A DNA stretch of 32,132 nucleotides. Source: a virus. The notes under the pieces are model-generated. The model was not told the DNA's origin. It saw only the letters and a list, made by a program, of their open reading frames with translations, and ran no database searches. The stretch spans positions 1-32,132 of the IMG/VR virus record IMGVR_UViG_3300025151_000013. The stretch is one strand, 5' to 3'. Both the position numbers and the translations under genes were made by a program. Of the stretch, positions 1-32,132 are shown in pieces (the first letter of the stretch is position 1; every line of letters begins with the position of its first letter).

Positions 1-99
1 CGGCGGCCTCTGCGGTTCTGCGAGTAAATCGTTGCAGAGCCATATCCATCGTCTGCGTAGATACGCCAGTGAGATCAGCGGCATAGCGCAACGCGCCTA
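1..99. repeat. Direct terminal repeat, left copy (circular-contig overlap)
   Basis: The first 99 bases are identical to bases 32034-32132. An exact repeat of this length at both ends of a contig is what a short-read assembler leaves when it closes a circle. It lies inside the tape-measure gene and restores that frame when joined. A real short terminal repeat of the virion DNA cannot be excluded from sequence alone, but its position in the middle of a structural gene makes that unlikely. Confidence 0.95.
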
Positions 100-10847: not shown

Positions 10848-11032
10848 GCTTCCTCCTCTGGAATAGGCAGCTCGATAGGATTTTTGCCAATGTTAAAATT
10901 GCAAACATTGCACAGACCAAAGGCGTTATTATCGCAATCAGTCCACATTTCCAAAGGACTGCCACATTCGCAGAATTCTCTGGTGATAACCATTGTTTTT
11001 TTCGGAAACTTAATAACATTTTTAGCACTCAT
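10844..11032 (-). CDS. Zinc-ribbon-like small protein
   Basis: This 62-residue protein has CECGSPLEMWTDCDNN followed by CNVCNF. The C-x-C-G and C-x-x-C knuckles suggest one zinc site. The remainder is Lys-rich at the N-terminus and acidic at the C-terminus (IPEEEA). The start lies inside the end of the phosphoesterase gene. It is probably a nucleic-acid or protein-binding factor; no named family is recognised. Confidence 0.7.
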   Translation of the reverse strand: MSAKNVIKFPKKTMVITREFCECGSPLEMWTDCDNNAFGLCNVCNFNIGKNPIELPIPEEEA

Positions 11033-12200
11033 TCAGTTGGCCTATTGATATTTTGACTCTTGAATCTTCGCCATAGTCTTTATGATAAACCACGGCAGTC
11101 ATAGAGCGTTCTGCGCCATACCCAGAATCGCTGTGCCACTGGTCAGTAGCCGTTAAGCTACCCCACCAACTGAATTGCATTGATCCGCATTCTCGCTCTA
11201 CATGGTGGTGGATATGCCCCAGATGGCAGTAGCGGTTCTTGTGCGCCGACCATTGATCATCTAAATTCTTAATGACTGTTTGCAAGATCTGCTCTGGCTT
11301 TATCCTATCGCCATGATGGTACACAAACATATTATTACCCCACTCCCAATGCAAGAACTTAGAATAATTCTCAAGCACTTTTAGTCGCGGCTCTTTCTGG
11401 TACATTAGCTCTATACAGGTCGATAGATGGCAAGCCATATCGTAGTCATGGTTGCCTCTGACATTTATCACCACCACTTCTTTATGCACCTGTAGTAGTC
11501 TGTCAATTAGGATTTGGAACAATTGCCCTGCCAGCTTGAAAGTCTTGCCTATCCTAGTGTCCACATCAACTGGCGTTCCTTTGGTTGTCGTATTTGCGCT
11601 AGAATCAGCATGAAAAAAATCTCCAACATTAACTAAAACGCCTGTTTTAGCATTGCCAACTCTGGTAGCCAATCTATCAACTGCATCTATTAGAACCTTT
11701 GTAGCTATCTTAATATCCCAATCATCATCATCTAGCTTCATGGCGGCATCTGCTAACATACCAAAGTGATGGTCACCTATCATATACATAGCGCAATAGT
11801 CATTATTTGCGCTTTTAGGGGGCTTAGATTTGGTTTTAAGGCCAGATATATCATCACTAAGGCCATCAACCATTGCTTCTATTTTTTGCCTTAGATCGCG
11901 TTTTTCTGGCTCTTGAATCACCCACTGTAGTTTGACTGATCCGTCATCCCCATAGGCGGTAGATATTCTTTTCGCTTCAAATCCTTCTGCTGTTTGGTGG
12001 GTCAAGTCTCGATGGGGGGCTATACCTCTTTGCGCGGCTTTAGCCTCTAGTTTGTTAATTATTCTATCAACAGTCCTGCGATTAATGCCAAGTGCTTTCG
12101 CTGCTTTGTTATTGCTTCCATTCAGCTTGACTGCGTTTAATACTTCTATTTGTTTATCGTTAGCTGCAAACTCATATAGCGTTTTGATGTTAACTTGCAT
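11022..12200 (-). CDS. HTH-metallophosphoesterase fusion
   Basis: This 392-residue protein has an N-terminal helix-turn-helix (about residues 10-55, NNKAAKALGINRRTVDRII), a linker and a calcineurin-like phosphoesterase domain. Metal-site motifs appear in order: MIGDHHFGM, NVGDFFHAD, VRGNHDYD, YHHGD and LGHIHHHVE. Such phage enzymes are thought to act on nucleic acids or nucleotides. The HTH resembles a replication or transposase-type DNA binder and could target the enzyme to phage DNA. Ribosome site GGAGAG precedes ATG 12200, three bases after the ninB stop. Confidence 0.9.
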   Translation of the reverse strand: MQVNIKTLYEFAANDKQIEVLNAVKLNGSNNKAAKALGINRRTVDRIINKLEAKAAQRGIAPHRDLTHQTAEGFEAKRISTAYGDDGSVKLQWVIQEPEKRDLRQKIEAMVDGLSDDISGLKTKSKPPKSANNDYCAMYMIGDHHFGMLADAAMKLDDDDWDIKIATKVLIDAVDRLATRVGNAKTGVLVNVGDFFHADSSANTTTKGTPVDVDTRIGKTFKLAGQLFQILIDRLLQVHKEVVVINVRGNHDYDMACHLSTCIELMYQKEPRLKVLENYSKFLHWEWGNNMFVYHHGDRIKPEQILQTVIKNLDDQWSAHKNRYCHLGHIHHHVERECGSMQFSWWGSLTATDQWHSDSGYGAERSMTAVVYHKDYGEDSRVKISIGQLNEC

Positions 12201-12202
12201 GG

Positions 12203-12661
12203 TTAACTCTCCTGTCGGCTTTTTAGTTCTGCGTACTCACTTTCTGCTGGGATGGTTAGGTTTATCCCCTGATCTAAAGCCCAATGATAGCACTGATCCA
12301 TAAAATGCACCATGTCACCTTTATTTAGATCACTGGTGCGCTTTATCTGCCCCTCTATCTTTTGGTTTTTAATCTGAAAATCATTAGTTCCTAAAAACCT
12401 TCTTTTCAACCAGAGCTTCCATGCTTCTTCTGCATCTCCTTCTGTAACCTTAACGCCCTTGCGCTCCATGCCTGTTTTAATCTCCCTTACCCAGATATGC
12501 AATAAGGCGTTCTGGCTTAAGCTTCTAGGATTCTGATAAGGCTCTAACTTAATACATAAAGGTCGATCATAATCCCAGTTTAGTACTCTATCTTTTAAGT
12601 ACCTTAGTTTGTGCTCAGTTTCTTCTTTAGAAAAAACCTTAACATGGTCGCCACTGCTCAT
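12203..12661 (-). CDS. ninB: NinB-like recombination protein
   Basis: This 152-residue protein matches NinB (lambda Orf): RPLCIKLEPYQNPRSLSQNA followed by LLHIWVREI, then KLWLKRRFLG and HFMDQCYHWA near the C-terminus. NinB binds single-stranded DNA and SSB and helps recombinases load. Its neighbours here include ERF and an SSB-like protein, consistent with that role. ATGA overlap with the upstream gene. Confidence 0.9.
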   Translation of the reverse strand: MSSGDHVKVFSKEETEHKLRYLKDRVLNWDYDRPLCIKLEPYQNPRSLSQNALLHIWVREIKTGMERKGVKVTEGDAEEAWKLWLKRRFLGTNDFQIKNQKIEGQIKRTSDLNKGDMVHFMDQCYHWALDQGINLTIPAESEYAELKSRQES

Positions 12662-12921
12662 AAGGATCTACGCATCCACATATCAGATAGTCTTTCCTGC
12701 GGTGTTTCTAAAGTAGGCATAAAGTGTGTCTTTTTTCTCTCGCTTCTAGGCTTTGGAAATATTTTATTATCGTCAATAATCGTATGCTTGCCGATCCTAT
12801 TTCTCATGGCAGTTTGTGTAACCCCTGCTATCTCAGACAGCTCCTTGTAAGTATAAAATTTTCCATGAACCAGCTTGTCTGATTTACCTATGTATTTAAT
12901 CAGCTTAATATTTTTATGCAC
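12658..12921 (-). CDS. Small HTH-like protein of unknown function
   Basis: An 87-residue basic protein. The start is a GTG (12921) with GGAGAAATAAGAA upstream, overlapping the previous stop. Residues about 22-48 (FYTYKELSEIAGVTQTAMRN) read as a helix-turn-helix, followed by a basic arm (PKPRSERKK). It may regulate or assist replication proteins. The family is not recognised. Confidence 0.65.
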   Translation of the reverse strand: MHKNIKLIKYIGKSDKLVHGKFYTYKELSEIAGVTQTAMRNRIGKHTIIDDNKIFPKPRSERKKTHFMPTLETPQERLSDMWMRRSL

Positions 12922-13279
12922 TTCTTATTTCTCCATCGTAGTAGTAGCCCAGTTTGGTTAAATAATATTGCTTCATTTGCTCCACTTGGCTAGGGTTTAC
13001 CCAAGTTATATCTGCCATCTGCATCTCTACTGTTTTGCTTCGCAAGTTAGTTTTAAACTTTCTAGCTTGCGGAGAGCCTCCCTTATCCTGCGCTCTAGCT
13101 AACCATGAATTTATAAATCTTTTAATCCCTTGCTTCGTTTTGCGTTTAGCTGGGTTAGCGTCACACCATGATTCCATTGCCATCAATTCTTGCTGAACAT
13201 TAACTGCCTGATAGGTTCGCTGCCATGCAATTATATCTCCCTGATCTGGCGTGTAGTTTTCACCTGTATTAAGCAGCAT
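12914..13279 (-). CDS. Replication-protein-like (C-terminal domain of phage replication initiators)
   Basis: A 121-residue basic protein. The central segment MAMESWCDANPAKRKTKQGI followed by KRFINSWLARAQDKGG is a pattern I associate with the C-terminal helicase-loader-like domain of phage replication proteins (O-like, DnaT-like). Here it stands alone without the DNA-binding half, which may be supplied by the winged-HTH gene immediately upstream (13269-13490). Ribosome site GGAGG precedes ATG 13279. Confidence 0.6.
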   Translation of the reverse strand: MLLNTGENYTPDQGDIIAWQRTYQAVNVQQELMAMESWCDANPAKRKTKQGIKRFINSWLARAQDKGGSPQARKFKTNLRSKTVEMQMADITWVNPSQVEQMKQYYLTKLGYYYDGEIRSA

Positions 13280-13490
13280 TAGAACCTCCTAGCGAATATT
13301 CTGCGACACTGCACTTTTCATCATATCTGTTTAATACAGTAATCATCTTTTTGTTAATTAAATGGCCAGCTTCTTTTAGGTCGTAAATCCTACTAGCTAA
13401 CCTTGTTATTCCTAACTCATTAAAAGCATTTAATGTGGTTATGGTTTTGCCAGTTTGTAAATATTCCAAAATTCTTTCTTGCTGTGTCAT
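13269..13490 (-). CDS. Winged helix-turn-helix protein (HTH_39-like)
   Basis: A 73-residue protein consisting of one small wHTH: ERILEYLQTGKTITTLNAFN, then GITRLASRIYDLKEAGHLI. This is the pattern of the short HTH_39 phage family, where G-I-T-R-L-x-x-R-I-x-D-L is the recognition helix. Ribosome site TAGGAG precedes ATG 13490. Its start overlaps the TGA of the methyltransferase 3' remnant (ATGA), so it was once the gene following the methyltransferase. Confidence 0.8.
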   Translation of the reverse strand: MTQQERILEYLQTGKTITTLNAFNELGITRLASRIYDLKEAGHLINKKMITVLNRYDEKCSVAEYSLGGSNAA

Positions 13491-13606
13491 GGTTTGTCTC
13501 CTATTAAGTTTTTAAATATATGTGCAATTACATCCACAGTCCACCCATTGCCTAACATCTTGTAACGCTGAGTATTAGAATTGCCATGTGTATTCTCCTT
13601 TATAAT
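13487..13606 (-). pseudogene. 3' remnant of a C5-cytosine DNA methyltransferase
   Basis: Between the Mom-like gene and the wHTH gene a 39-codon open stretch reads NSNTQRYKMLGNGWTVDVIA and on to IFKNLIGDKP followed by TGA. The R-Y-K-x-L-G-N-G-W-T-V-D-V-I block is motif X, the C-terminus of DNMT-type cytosine-5 methyltransferases. The PCQ and ENV catalytic motifs are absent. There is no in-frame ATG before the Met of KMLGN. A strong AAAGGAG site instead starts an out-of-frame 11-codon peptide (MAILILSVTRC) whose stop overlaps that Met. It is the 3' stub of the gene whose 5' stub lies at 14179-14268. Confidence 0.88.
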
Positions 13607-14172
13607 CTATCAGTGATTAAAATTCTTTTTTTGTTTGCACCGTCAGGCTTGACAAATCTTTCTGCTATCTTTTCAGCAGTGTCCCATTTAAGACTTATGC
13701 TTTTTCTGTTTGCTGGTAAACCTGCTGTTTCTCCAATGTTTACCCAGTTGTCTGCCAAATACACACTGCCTTTTTTGTCTGCACCAATTGTGGTCACAAT
13801 AGCCAATAAATTATCACCATAACGGTTATACCAGTCTGCTTTTGCTCTCCCTCTAATTGCTTTTAGTATTTGACTGCCAAAATTGCGGTGTGGACTGTTT
13901 GCTATACAAAAGCGTTTGTTATCTGCAACACTGTTAAACATTTTGTCAAACTGTTTCTGACCAACATCAAAATAATTTAAGATGCTTTTAGGGGTAGGCT
14001 TAAAGCCAGAACCTAACCAGAATGTAGCACAATCTACTCCATTATATGAGATAATGTATTTTATACAGCGGCCTACCACCCTAGGTGTGCTGACATAACT
14101 GTGATATGTCATCACAATATGGTTTGCTATATCTTTATCAGCCTTTGTTTCAGCAATGCGTATATTCATCAT
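13600..14172 (-). CDS. Mom/DUF4338-like putative DNA-modification protein, sitting inside a broken methyltransferase
   Basis: A 190-residue basic protein starting at ATG 14172 with TAGGAG upstream. Recognisable stretches are YHSYVSTPRVVGRCIKYII (about residues 23-43), DNKRFCIANSPHRNFGSQIL and GSVYLADNWVNIGETAGLP. The asparagine-Arg-Phe, G-S-x-I-L and A-D-N-W-x-x-I-G-x-T blocks resemble the GNAT-fold proteins called Mom (adenine modification of phage Mu) and the related DUF4338/DruA group. The family choice is from pattern memory; Mom-like is more likely given its place in a phage DNA-modification locus. Its coding sequence replaces the centre of a cytosine methyltransferase gene. It is in frame with the 5' stub, separated by one amber codon. 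Confidence 0.6.
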   Translation of the reverse strand: MMNIRIAETKADKDIANHIVMTYHSYVSTPRVVGRCIKYIISYNGVDCATFWLGSGFKPTPKSILNYFDVGQKQFDKMFNSVADNKRFCIANSPHRNFGSQILKAIRGRAKADWYNRYGDNLLAIVTTIGADKKGSVYLADNWVNIGETAGLPANRKSISLKWDTAEKIAERFVKPDGANKKRILITDRL

Positions 14173-14178
14173 AATCTC

Positions 14179-14268
14179 CTATGCGTAATAGTTATCAACT
14201 TTTATACCTAATCTTTCTAGTGCGATACGACCACAAGCCATACCATCGAATAAACTTAAAACATTCAT
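14179..14268 (-). pseudogene. 5' remnant of a C5-cytosine DNA methyltransferase (motif I)
   Basis: ATG 14268, preceded by TAGGAAATTCAA, opens a 29-codon frame MNVLSLFDGMACGRIAL... ending in NYYA then TAG. This is the canonical N-terminus and motif I (F-D-G-x-x-C-G) of phage cytosine-5 methyltransferases, which normally continues S-E-I-D. Here the next codons are TAG GAG ATT, that is stop-E-I, so homology continues two codons past the stop. The coding part is undamaged, so the short peptide may still be made. The rest of the gene is missing apart from the 3' stub. Confidence 0.88.
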
Positions 14269-14561
14269 TTGAATTTCCTATGGCTCGGCAAGCCTCGCCT
14301 GTAATTTTAAAAATTTATTTGTATATATTTAAGTATATATACACCCACTTTTCACCCTTTAACTACGCAGAGCTAAATTTTCGATCTGAGGGCAAAGCAA
14401 CTCAGCGGCTTAGTCGTAATCGTATCGGATATCCAACCTATCCATCCGCAGAAACCGATCTGCTTTTGGGGCTATGTCTGGAGGGTCAACCACGCTCTGA
14501 TGTTTAATTTAAGGTGCTCATCAGCCTCTAGCCCGATTACTAGTGCGATAAGAAAGGTATA
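14269..14561. other. 293-bp non-coding region: AT-rich repeat and clustered hairpins
   Basis: No convincing gene. An AT-rich tract (14306-14341) contains the near-palindrome TATATATTTAAGTATATATA. From 14386 to 14463 three short perfect inverted repeats follow one another: CTGAG/CTCAG (14386-14405), CGGAT/ATCCG (14426-14448) and GCAGA/TCTGC (14448-14463). A plus-strand frame runs through 14280-14507, but it has no ribosome site. It could hold a replication origin, a leader RNA for the modification locus, or a structured RNA; the sequence alone does not decide. Confidence 0.45.
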
Positions 14562-14594: not shown

Positions 14595-14664
14595 CTGTAT
14601 CCGCACATACAGTATTACTCATCTAAATGAGTTTGTAAAGCCCCTTAATTGGGGCTTTATTTTA
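14595..14664 (+). ncRNA. Candidate plus-strand small RNA with three perfect hairpins
   Basis: Three perfect inverted repeats occur in 64 bases: CTGTAT-CCGCAC-ATACAG (14595-14612), ACTCAT-CTAA-ATGAGT (14617-14632) and AAAGCCCC-TTAATT-GGGGCTTT (14637-14658). The last is followed by ATTTTA, so it resembles an intrinsic terminator in the plus direction. A promoter-like sequence precedes it. The result looks like a 60-70 nt compact RNA, opposite to all genes and ending at the HTH gene stop. Alternatively the hairpins are the 3' untranslated end of the minus-strand HTH message. Confidence 0.45.
14637..14663 (+). terminator. Intrinsic terminator between the HTH gene and the non-coding region
   Basis: An eight-pair stem AAAGCCCC/GGGGCTTT with a six-base loop is followed on the plus strand by ATTTT. 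On the minus strand the same stem follows the HTH stop directly and the run after it is ACAAAC. Termination is therefore better supported in the plus direction, but it may work both ways. Confidence 0.6.
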
Positions 14665-14856
14665 CAGCTTGATAAATTCCTCCAAGCCATAACCTAGCGC
14701 CCGAGATACCCTAATAGCAGTATCTAGCCTACAATTTTTTTTACTGCGCCAGATATTTATCTGCTGGCGGTGTACGCCTAACATCCTTGATAGCTCTGCG
14801 CTACTAATCCCTTTCATTTGTTGTGCTACTCTTAGCGAGTTTCCGAAATCTAGCAT
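14662..14856 (-). CDS. XRE/Cro-type HTH regulator
   Basis: The start is set at ATG 14856 (MLDFGNSLRVAQQMKGISSA), giving 64 residues, because AAGGGTGG lies eight bases upstream. A GTG at 14865 would add three residues. The HTH is LSRMLGVHRQQINIWRSKKN, the Cro/C1 pattern of one compact domain with no dimerisation or cleavage domain. It is the only Cro/C1-type regulator in the genome. It lies between hairpin-rich spacers and is a candidate repressor of the duplicated promoters, although this is inference. Confidence 0.82.
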   Translation of the reverse strand: MLDFGNSLRVAQQMKGISSAELSRMLGVHRQQINIWRSKKNCRLDTAIRVSRALGYGLEEFIKL

Positions 14857-14918
14857 TTTTGCCACCCTTGTGTTAAATTTGCAATGATGCTTTCCCCGAG
14901 CATCTCTCCTATGGTTTA

Positions 14919-15270: not shown

Positions 15271-15894
15271 CTATCTGGCTTCTCTAAACTCTGTGGTTTT
15301 CATTGTGGCGCGTTCTTCTGTAGTGAATACGCCTCCTTTGCTTGGTGCTTTCCATAGCAGTTGCTTCTCCGTATCTGTTAGCTCTGACCATGCCTCATTA
15401 GCTGTAGCCAGATCACCTGTGGCGATTCCATCTTTTATAGCGTGAACGCTAGGCATTAAGTCCATAACCATATCTTGATACTTTTCCTGCTCTGACTTTT
15501 CGCCTCTCAGCATAGCCGCTTCTGCATCATCATCTGCTGTGGGTATTCCTGCGATACTCTGTAGCGCGTATCGTCTAGCATAAGTGATTGCTGATCCTGC
15601 GGCCTGTGGGTCACGCTTTACGATTGGCAGGATATAAGACATCTCTAGCCATTGCCCCGATATGTGCATAAGCCTCGTTGATACGCCCACGCCAGTCTCG
15701 TCACTGACAGGGAACTGCGTATAGCTTAATCCGTTATCAGCAAAAGGCTGTTTAATAGCTTTTATGACAGAAGTTAGGTCTGCATAGCTTGACTTAAAGA
15801 ATGGGTTGGCACTGTCCTTAACAGCACCGCCCATCTGTGATTGCGCTTGATGTAGCGCACTAGCTAGCTCGTTGATTTGTTCGCTTGATCTCAT
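15271..15894 (-). CDS. erf: ERF-family single-strand annealing protein
   Basis: This 207-residue protein carries the ERF signature: NPFFKSSYADLTSVIKAIK (about residues 26-45), LPIVKRDPQAAGSAITYARR and YALQSIAGIPTADDDAEAA. ERF proteins form rings on single-stranded DNA and anneal complementary strands; in phage P22 this circularises the genome. The C-terminal part is variable and helical. It starts at ATG 15894 with GAGAAGG upstream and overlaps the preceding gene by 35 bases. Confidence 0.93.
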   Translation of the reverse strand: MRSSEQINELASALHQAQSQMGGAVKDSANPFFKSSYADLTSVIKAIKQPFADNGLSYTQFPVSDETGVGVSTRLMHISGQWLEMSYILPIVKRDPQAAGSAITYARRYALQSIAGIPTADDDAEAAMLRGEKSEQEKYQDMVMDLMPSVHAIKDGIATGDLATANEAWSELTDTEKQLLWKAPSKGGVFTTEERATMKTTEFREAR

Positions 15895-30540: not shown

Positions 30541-32132
30541 TTATGCTCCTACTAGGGACTTCGAGTAATTACCGCCCCTCATTCTAGCATCAGCCACCGC
30601 CTGTTTAGTAGCGTTTGCAATCTGTGGCATTAGTGTAGCTATCTCAGCACGTACGGTTTGCTGAACGCCTGTACTTACATTGATAGTCTGGTTAATAATA
30701 GTGCCGCCACCGCCTAACTTTTTGCTTGGAATAATCGCTCCTGACTGATTAGGCACAAACATTTCTGCACCGCGCTCACCGACCATGTATGGCTGGCCAG
30801 ATTGTACTGAACCGCCTATAGCCTTCATGGAAAAAGGATCACTTGATCCCAATGCAGAGCCGTATCCAAACTCTCTGTTGGTTGCGGCTTGCGGACTAAA
30901 ATAACCTGTAATCGCTCCGAATGCCGCATCGACTATGTACTTTTGTATAAGCATCTTAATCAGGCTATCTACCACGCTTTTAGCCATAGCTTTAATTGCA
31001 TCAGCAAAATTAGCCGCGCCAGTAATTCCTGCGGCAAGCGAATCTGTCAATCCATCTAAACCCTGCTTCGTTAGGTTTTGTATATTTTCTTGCATTGATG
31101 GCAAAGTATCGCTCCAAGACTTAAAGCCTTTCTGAAGATTGTTTAATCCTTCTTCTGTATTTTTAAATAAATTACCTTTGCCTCCTTTTTCGCCAATAGT
31201 TTCTTGCAGTTTCAATATACTTTGAATAGTTTCATCAAAAAACTCACCAAGCCCATTTTTAACTAAAGGCTCTTGCATTTCTTTTAGCTTTTCGTCAGCC
31301 AAAATAACTTGGTACATTAATTCTTCTATTTTGTCCTTTTTGGCATCCAAGTCCTCGCCTGTCAAAATGTCCGCAAAGCTTGGCATTCCTCCAGCTTCCA
31401 GCGCAGATATTTCCCCAGCAAGCTCTGATATTTCCTCTTTAAGCCTTACAATGTTGTTTTCTTGCGACTTAATTTCAAAAGAATCGAATATATTGTTAGC
31501 TTTATTGACAAACCCAGATATTGCCTCCAAGCCCATATCTAAAGCAGAAATAATATTAGCAATAGATTGCAAAAACCCGCGAGCCAAAGACTGCGCCCAT
31601 TTCTCTACGCCTCCTTCATCTTTAGCTATTTCTTGAAAAAAGCTAGTAATTCTTTCAGTAACTGCTCTGATAGCAGGAGCAAGTGCCGCGACAAATTGGT
31701 CTGTTACTCCTTTCGCTAGGCTTCTTAATTTTGTAAGTGAATCTACAGTATCTTCAACGCCTTTTGCCGCACTGCTAGACATAGTCAGTCCGAGCAACCT
31801 AGCCTCTCCAAGCATTTCTTTTAGGCCATCACTTCCTTGCGATAAGGTGTTAACTAATGCTGCACCCTCAGAATCAAATAGCTTAAAGGCTAATCTCAGT
31901 CTATCGCTTTCGCTTGTCACATTTTCAAACGCATCAGCTAAAACAATCATCCGCTTATCAAGCGGCATTCTGTTCAATTCTTGAGCATTTATGCCTAGTT
32001 CTTTGATTGCGCCTTTAGCCTCGCCTGTCCCTGCGGCGGCCTCTGCGGTTCTGCGAGTAAATCGTTGCAGAGCCATATCCATCGTCTGCGTAGATACGCC
32101 AGTGAGATCAGCGGCATAGCGCAACGCGCCTA
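30541..32132 (-). CDS. Tape measure protein, main part (N-terminus lies at window start)
   Basis: The frame is open to the right end of the window and joins the piece at 1-331 to give 607 residues. The segment begins LRYAADLTGVSTQTMDMALQ, followed by tape-measure-like DSEGAALVNTLSQGSDGLKE and the coiled coil VRLKEEISELAGEISALEAG. Near the C-terminus are GAANFADAIKAMAKSVVDSL and a glycine-rich GGSVQSGQPYMVGERGAEMF, a very common ending in tape-measure proteins. The central hydrophobic part may be inserted in the membrane during DNA entry. Confidence 0.93.
   Translation of the reverse strand, partial: GALRYAADLTGVSTQTMDMALQRFTRRTAEAAAGTGEAKGAIKELGINAQELNRMPLDKRMIVLADAFENVTSESDRLRLAFKLFDSEGAALVNTLSQGSDGLKEMLGEARLLGLTMSSSAAKGVEDTVDSLTKLRSLAKGVTDQFVAALAPAIRAVTERITSFFQEIAKDEGGVEKWAQSLARGFLQSIANIISALDMGLEAISGFVNKANNIFDSFEIKSQENNIVRLKEEISELAGEISALEAGGMPSFADILTGEDLDAKKDKIEELMYQVILADEKLKEMQEPLVKNGLGEFFDETIQSILKLQETIGEKGGKGNLFKNTEEGLNNLQKGFKSWSDTLPSMQENIQNLTKQGLDGLTDSLAAGITGAANFADAIKAMAKSVVDSLIKMLIQKYIVDAAFGAITGYFSPQAATNREFGYGSALGSSDPFSMKAIGGSVQSGQPYMVGERGAEMFVPNQSGAIIPSKKLGGGGTIINQTINVSTGVQQTVRAEIATLMPQIANATKQAVADARMRGGNYSKSLVGA
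32034..32132. repeat. Direct terminal repeat, right copy
   Basis: Identical to bases 1-99. Removing one copy and joining the ends gives a circle of 32,033 bases in which the tape-measure frame is continuous. Confidence 0.95.

What the first reader, a model, noticed from the sequence alone, without database searches (positions are those of the whole stretch)
13487..14268. A cytosine methyltransferase gene hollowed out and occupied by a Mom/DUF4338-like gene
Seen: 29 intact codons of the start of a C5-methyltransferase (MNVLSLFDGMACG, motif I) at 14179-14268, and about 30 codons of its end (RYKMLGNGWTVDVIAHI, motif X) at 13487-13606. Both are undamaged and in the same order and strand. The catalytic PCQ and ENV blocks are gone, and a complete 190-codon gene with Mom/DruA-like blocks lies exactly between the stubs. 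Known: Mom-type proteins modify adenines to evade restriction, and C5-methyltransferases do the same on cytosine. Inference: the stubs are the homology arms left after one DNA-modification gene replaced another, and may define a swapping site used repeatedly in relatives.
Basis: partly seen in the sequence, partly recalled or inferred. Interest (0 to 1): 0.85.

Follow-up and report, generated by a model that had tools for sequence, protein, structure and literature searches.

The report
Modification-gene slot with methyltransferase stubs
In one marine phage a DNA-methylating gene has been gutted, leaving only its two ends, and a gene for a probable DNA-base acylating enzyme sits between them; related phages show that this spot is a regular exchange site for DNA-modifying genes, placed just behind a previously undescribed structured RNA.

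Summary
On the minus strand, 14268-14179 encodes the first 29 codons of a phage C5-cytosine methyltransferase, 13594-13487 its last ~35 codons, and a complete 190-aa gene (14172-13600) fills the gap; the catalytic core is absent. Intact methyltransferases sit at the same position in eight related contigs; a close sibling (L007) has nothing there. The 190-aa protein is a GNAT-fold member of the Mom/DruA (DUF4338) superfamily: its predicted fold matches phage Mu Mom, the residue aligned with Mom S124 is conserved, and its profile matches DruA strongly. DNA-base acylation is the likely role, unproven. The 'swapping site' inference is half right. The locus is a genuine slot: among 125 related loci it holds nothing, two families of DNA methyltransferase, an N6/N4 methyltransferase, an ABC-GNAT fusion, HNH nucleases or small genes. 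But its borders are the neighbouring elements, not the stubs: a stub pair around other cargo was seen only in the window, and relatives of the inserted gene lie in unrelated phages without methyltransferase arms. Replacement by relaxed or illegitimate recombination is likelier than arm-guided swapping. In passing: the ~163-nt leader directly upstream is a strongly covarying structured RNA, absent from Rfam.

The parts
14179..14268 (-). 5' stub of a C5-cytosine methyltransferase: start codon, motif I (FDGMACG), 29 codons, stop TAG
   Evidence: 76-88% aa identity to intact phage C5-MTases; up to 76 of 96 nt identical to intact genes; same offset behind the leader as intact MTases
14176..14180 (-). 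Shine-Dalgarno-like AGGAG made at the stub's stop codon (TCxGAG or GCxGAG in intact genes, TAGGAG here), 3 nt before ATGATG of the 190-aa gene
   Evidence: sequence; coupling of translation is inference
13600..14172 (-). 190-aa GNAT-fold protein of the Mom/DruA (DUF4338) superfamily, probable DNA-base acyltransferase
   Evidence: 12 of 13 family members match the Mom PHROG; AlphaFold2 pLDDT 81; PDB match 8bv8 (Mu Mom); S100 aligns with Mom S124
13487..13594 (-). 3' stub of the same methyltransferase: ~35 codons with motif X region (MLGNGWTVDVIAHIF), stop; fossil that still carries the RBS of the next gene
13269..13490 (-). 73-aa protein (phrog_4973), right border of the slot
   Evidence: conserved in relatives
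12914..13279 (-). 121-aa protein (phrog_1032-like), second right-hand border; anchor in relatives that lack the 73-aa gene
14378..14539 (-). Conserved structured leader RNA, left border of the slot; not in Rfam
14662..14865 (-). 67-aa HTH repressor-like protein upstream of the leader
15271..15894 (-). Erf-like single-strand annealing recombinase of the phage
   Evidence: phrog_2324, E 4e-46
12203..12661 (-). NinB/Orf-like recombination mediator
   Evidence: phrog_72, E 8e-23
11022..12200 (-). 392-aa exonuclease (phrog_704) used to find the relatives

Best explanation
The locus is the DNA-modification slot of a group of marine siphophages. Shown: intact C5-methyltransferase genes stand directly behind a structured leader RNA in relatives; in this phage everything between codon ~31 and the last ~35 codons of such a gene is replaced by a gene for a 190-aa GNAT protein of the Mom/DruA superfamily; other relatives carry other modification genes, nucleases or nothing at the same place. 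Inferred: the replacement came through relaxed or microhomology-based recombination (the phage has Erf annealing protein, NinB and an exonuclease gene close by), not through the stubs as arms; the stubs persist because the first supplies leader context, start and a Shine-Dalgarno site, and the second supplies the ribosome-binding site of the next gene; the new protein acylates bases of the phage DNA from an acyl-CoA and so takes over the anti-restriction task of the lost methyltransferase.
For: Stubs. Intact MTase at the same position. Empty siblings: L007 (392-aa protein 97% identical) and L077 against L080. Mom/DruA kinship: phrog_1384 'Mom-like DNA modification protein' in 12 of 13 members, best 4.9e-6; weak Pfam DruA and Mom hits; hhalign to a DruA set 97.7%, E 1.4e-12; Foldseek GNAT fold, Mu Mom 8bv8 E 1.4e-4 with the highest TMq of the listed PDB hits, 0.59, phage Mom S4TTR0 E 1.6e-6; Ser100 aligned with Mom S124, the residue mutated in the 'inactive mutant' entry 8bv8. 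Slot contents. Same virus in an independent contig (99.96% over 17.9 kb), ending inside the 5' stub.
Against: The two stub/GNAT junctions rest on a single metagenome assembly. The L277 break inside the stub could equally be poor coverage. The recombination route is inferred from absence of arm-bearing donors in the searched collections, which are not exhaustive.
Confidence: 0.7

Rival explanations
1. The stubs are true homology arms of a swapping cassette: modification genes are exchanged by homologous recombination inside the conserved ends of methyltransferase genes.
For: Both stubs are intact at the reading-frame level and 78-85% identical in DNA to a same-slot MTase; the phage has an Erf annealing protein.
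Against: No second stub pair around other cargo among 119 3'-motif and 85 5'-motif stretches; close GNAT relatives have no MTase arms; siblings gain and lose whole genes.
Confidence: 0.12
2. Homing-endonuclease-driven event: an HNH endonuclease or intron cut inside the methyltransferase and repair captured the GNAT gene and deleted the core.
For: HNH genes occupy the slot in L208, L214, L228, L252, L267, L270 and L069; one MTase (L172) carries an HNH-like insertion directly before VSNSQRYK, near where the 3' stub begins.
Against: No nuclease or intron remnant lies between the stubs in the window; the 5' junction has no known homing site.
Confidence: 0.12
3. Assembly chimera: reads of two phage populations, one with an MTase, one with a GNAT gene, were joined.
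For: Metagenome assembly; another contig of the same virus breaks inside the 5' stub.
Against: No shared repeat is visible at either join; reading frames, RBS and spacing are clean; the closest GNAT relative shares no sequence with the MTase ends.
Confidence: 0.05
4. The 190-aa protein is a GNAT that modifies a protein or small molecule (RimI-like), not DNA.
For: The best PDB hits by E-value are RimI-type acetyltransferases, as expected for any GNAT.
Against: Sequence motifs (RN-x-x-S, G-x-V-Y-x-A-x-N-W) and profile hits point to Mom/DruA, not to RimI; Mu Mom has the highest TMq listed.
Confidence: 0.2

Closest known systems
Phage Mu Mom (PF25680, PDB 8bv8)
   Same: GNAT fold; aligned serine (S100 with S124) in the same RN-x-x-S context; G-x-V-Y-x-A-x-N motif; phage accessory gene
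   Different: About 23% identity; no Com gene identified next to it; Mom-invariant D149 not kept; different C-terminal block (GLPxxxKSxSxKW...KPTGENKK)
DruA / DUF4338 (PF14236)
   Same: Strongest profile-profile match (hhalign 97.7%, E 1.4e-12); NxRFxI, NxxS, GTxYxAxNWxxxGxTAG motifs
   Different: No N-terminal DruA region; stand-alone phage gene, no Druantia operon; 20-27% identity
Phage orphan C5-cytosine methyltransferases (PF00145, phrog_116)
   Same: The stubs are the two ends of such a gene; intact copies at the same site in relatives
   Different: Catalytic core absent; cannot be active
GNAT coupled with ABC ATPase, predicted DNA acyl-modification (mentioned in PMC7824862)
   Same: A 355-aa ABC+GNAT protein occupies the same slot in L011, L014, L018
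   Different: A different architecture from the window's stand-alone GNAT; only the domain hits were tested here

Membership tests
C5-cytosine DNA methyltransferase | Motif I (FxGxG-type SAM site) | tested here: met
   5' stub FDGMACG
C5-cytosine DNA methyltransferase | Motif IV PCQ and motif VI ENV | tested here: not met
   absent between 14179 and 13594
C5-cytosine DNA methyltransferase | Motif X region (GNGW) | tested here: met
   3' stub MLGNGWTVDV
Mom (PF25680 / phrog_1384) | Profile match above curated cut-off | tested here: not met
   window protein no hit; one relative E 1.1e-3 (Pfam); 12 of 13 aligned members hit phrog_1384, best 4.9e-6
Mom (PF25680 / phrog_1384) | GNAT fold like 8bv8 | tested here: met
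   Foldseek E 1.4e-4, TMq 0.59; phage Mom S4TTR0 E 1.6e-6
Mom (PF25680 / phrog_1384) | Active-site serine S124 (mutated in 8bv8) | tested here: met
   S100 in ungapped local register; S in all but one of 13 members (T in L287)
Mom (PF25680 / phrog_1384) | D149, invariant in four Mom proteins aligned here | tested here: not met
   no invariant acidic residue at that place
Mom (PF25680 / phrog_1384) | Acyl transfer to adenine N6 in DNA | not testable with these tools
   needs mass spectrometry
DruA (PF14236) | Profile match above curated cut-off | tested here: not met
   window protein no hit; 3 relatives, best E 1.5e-3
DruA (PF14236) | Profile-profile homology | tested here: met
   hhalign A4 vs A6: 97.7%, E 1.4e-12 over 132 columns; both alignments are shallow
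DruA (PF14236) | Druantia operon context | tested here: not met
   neighbours are phage replication/recombination genes

The most novel reading that the evidence does not exclude
A new structured RNA of marine phages (about 163 nt, no Rfam family) marks and controls an exchange slot for DNA-modification genes: whichever modification gene lands behind it (C5- or other methyltransferase, ABC-GNAT, Mom/DruA-like GNAT) comes under the same RNA-based control, a counterpart of the post-transcriptional control of mom in phage Mu. The RNA's covarying structure is shown; its control of the slot is not.
Probability: 0.3. Interest if true: 0.8.

Novelty: new variant of a known kind. Interest (0 to 1): 0.58.

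Why it matters
It is a captured step in the turnover of phage anti-restriction genes: one chemistry (cytosine methylation) replaced inside its own gene by another (probable base acylation), with both ends of the loser still readable. The slot gives a ready list of modification enzymes that substitute for one another in one phage group, including a stand-alone phage branch of the Mom/DruA superfamily that the family libraries searched here do not recognise by itself. The conserved structured RNA at the slot's edge is a testable regulator and would be a new RNA family.

Tried and rejected
Pfam, PHROGs, PADLOC and PDB sequence searches with the 190-aa protein alone: nothing meaningful. tblastn of it against phages: none; plasmids: one DruA at E 0.04, which became the lead. 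First genome scan with a two-sequence alignment: nothing; repeated with a wider alignment. Near-identity search of the window against INPHARED: none. RNA model in 274 genomes of one bacterial class: none, uninformative without a positive control. Search for further stub pairs: only contig edges, introns or inteins, frameshifts and circularly permuted MTases. Rejected: 5' stub as a conserved short leader ORF of the group, since relatives have it only as the start of a full MTase or not at all. Papers on Mom/DruA kinship: none found; PMC7824862 used for Mom background.

Full report
OBSERVATION. The minus strand reads, in order: HTH gene (14865-14662), a ~390-nt intergenic stretch with a conserved leader, ATG 14268 with MNVLSLFDGMACGRIALERLGIKVDNYYA and stop TAG (14181-14179), the 190-aa ORF 14172-13600, and from about 13594 (NTHG)NSNTQRYKMLGNGWTVDVIAHIFKNLIGDKP ending at 13487 inside the start of the next gene. 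blastn against phage records aligns the two stubs in order with single methyltransferase genes; PF00145 and PHROG methyltransferase profiles agree. PCQ and ENV blocks are missing. The window's first and last 99 bases are identical, so the record is a complete circle of about 32.03 kb; its genes are those of a siphophage.

WHAT STOOD THERE BEFORE. Relatives were found through the 392-aa exonuclease (80 loci) and through an exact 23-nt piece of the leader (74 stretches). In L080, L219, L230, L234, L241, L247, L256 and L273 a C5-methyltransferase begins just behind the same leader (L278 and L279 are the longer records of L219 and L230); that of L080 is 344 aa and hits PF00145 at 4e-49. Among 61 distinct intact methyltransferases in the fetched loci, those most like the two stubs in DNA include the same-slot ones (75/96 and 61/72 positions for L279). 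L007, whose 392-aa protein is 97% identical, has neither methyltransferase nor GNAT gene: the leader runs on to the 73-aa gene. L077 against L080 shows the same clean presence/absence of a whole methyltransferase gene. Descent of the stubs from a methyltransferase in this slot is therefore well supported. A second contig of the same virus (L258/L277, 99.96% over 17.9 kb) from another metagenome ends inside the 5' stub, which fits, but does not prove, variation at that point.

JUNCTIONS. Intact genes read GCx-(T/G)Cx-GAG-ATT-GAT; the window reads GCATAGGAGATTATGATG. The homology thus ends within two codons after the stub's stop, and the changed bases make TAGGAG, a stop plus Shine-Dalgarno-like site 3 nt before the double ATG of the GNAT gene. 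On the other side only about 6 nt separate the GNAT stop from methyltransferase-derived sequence (T-x-G-x-S-N-T-Q-R-Y-K), and the stub's last codons hold the ribosome-binding site of the 73-aa gene. Translational coupling is inference.

THE INSERTED GENE. Close relatives (54-86% identity) lie in quite different phages, in varied gene neighbourhoods, and no methyltransferase end was found next to any of them. The window protein alone passes no library threshold, but 12 of 13 aligned members match phrog_1384 'Mom-like DNA modification protein' (best 4.9e-6), 3 match DruA and 1 matches Mom in Pfam. Profile-profile comparison gives 97.7% and E 1.4e-12 against DruA proteins and a weak 45.7%, E 2e-4, against Mom; the alignments are shallow. 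AlphaFold2 gives pLDDT 81, pTM 0.79; Foldseek finds the GNAT fold, with Mu Mom 8bv8 at E 1.4e-4 and the highest TMq among the listed hits, and a phage Mom in BFVD at 1.6e-6. Mom S124, the residue changed in the 'inactive mutant' 8bv8, aligns with S100 (RNSES/RNFGS), which is Ser in all members but one. Mom-invariant D149 has no counterpart. So: a member of the Mom/DruA superfamily, closer to DruA in sequence, which probably works like Mom (acyl group from acyl-CoA to a DNA base), but not a member of PF25680 or PF14236 by their cut-offs. Mom chemistry as background: PMC7824862.

THE SLOT. For 125 loci with the leader RNA, the stretch up to the 121-aa gene was classified (protein families). Empty (73-aa gene first): 55. 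C5-methyltransferase: 8. A second methyltransferase family (phrog_1008, E 3e-31): 7. ABC-ATPase plus GNAT fusion: 3; PMC7824862 describes such a pairing as a predicted base-acylating system. N6/N4 methyltransferase, between the 73- and 121-aa genes: 1 (L013). HNH nucleases: 7. Small proteins without a name, or contigs cut short: the rest. Counts are contigs, not independent events, and several are near-duplicates. The window is the only locus with two stubs.

MECHANISM OF REPLACEMENT. The known relatives of the inserted gene show no methyltransferase arms, the phage has Erf, NinB and an exonuclease within 3 kb, and whole genes come and go in siblings. Relaxed or microhomology recombination is the simplest account. 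HNH genes in the slot of seven contigs, and an HNH-like insertion just before VSNSQRYK in L172, make endonuclease-provoked repair a fair second.

THE LEADER RNA. A 29-sequence alignment of the leader gives 40 pairs in 7 helices; 97.0% of cells are paired against 81.0% in shuffles and 33-40% when partners are slid; 29 pairs show double changes, 196 cells against 55.8, and 0 of 500 shuffles reach any observed value. Single-sequence folding is not unusual (z -0.27), so the case rests on covariation. No Rfam family matches. A covariance model (R1, 163 positions) finds it in 48 of 62 sources searched, including most relatives whose contig spans the region, between the HTH gene and the slot. It lies outside the given finding but forms the left border of the slot, and deserves its own study.

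Noticed in passing
window 14539-14378, minus strand; L077:1658-1819, L005:2901-3063 and about 45 further loci: Conserved leader is a strongly covarying structured RNA (29 of 40 pairs with compensatory changes, core GAGCGUGGUUGACCCUCCAGACA) without an Rfam match; it sits just upstream of the cargo slot in most relatives.
   Followed up: yes
L018:2433-3497, also L011 and L014: ABC-ATPase plus GNAT fusion protein (phrog_11143, unknown function) in the same slot, resembling a predicted DNA-acylation system.
   Followed up: partly
L013:4177-4872: N6/N4 DNA methyltransferase inserted between the 73-aa and 121-aa genes, absent from close relatives L032 and L050.
   Followed up: partly
L187:486-2300 (+); L172 whole, reverse strand: Phage C5-methyltransferases interrupted at catalytic motifs: intein-like insertion at PCQ (L187) and an HNH-like insertion before motif X (L172).
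   Followed up: no
L092, L105, L130, L139, L174: Circularly permuted C5-methyltransferases: motif X (MLGNGWTVDV) followed by motif I (SMYDGMSCGHIAL) near the C-terminus of one ORF.
   Followed up: no
L301:3872-5107; L281: Bacterial DruA proteins apparently fused to, or lying beside, transposase or integrase genes.
   Followed up: no
window 1-99 and 32034-32132: Exact 99-bp terminal repeat: the record is a closed circle of about 32,033 bp.
   Followed up: yes
L234 and L247, ORF starting 253 nt after the leader motif: C5-methyltransferase fused in frame to the small GKGSxQRPTN protein that is a separate downstream ORF in L080 and L077.
   Followed up: no
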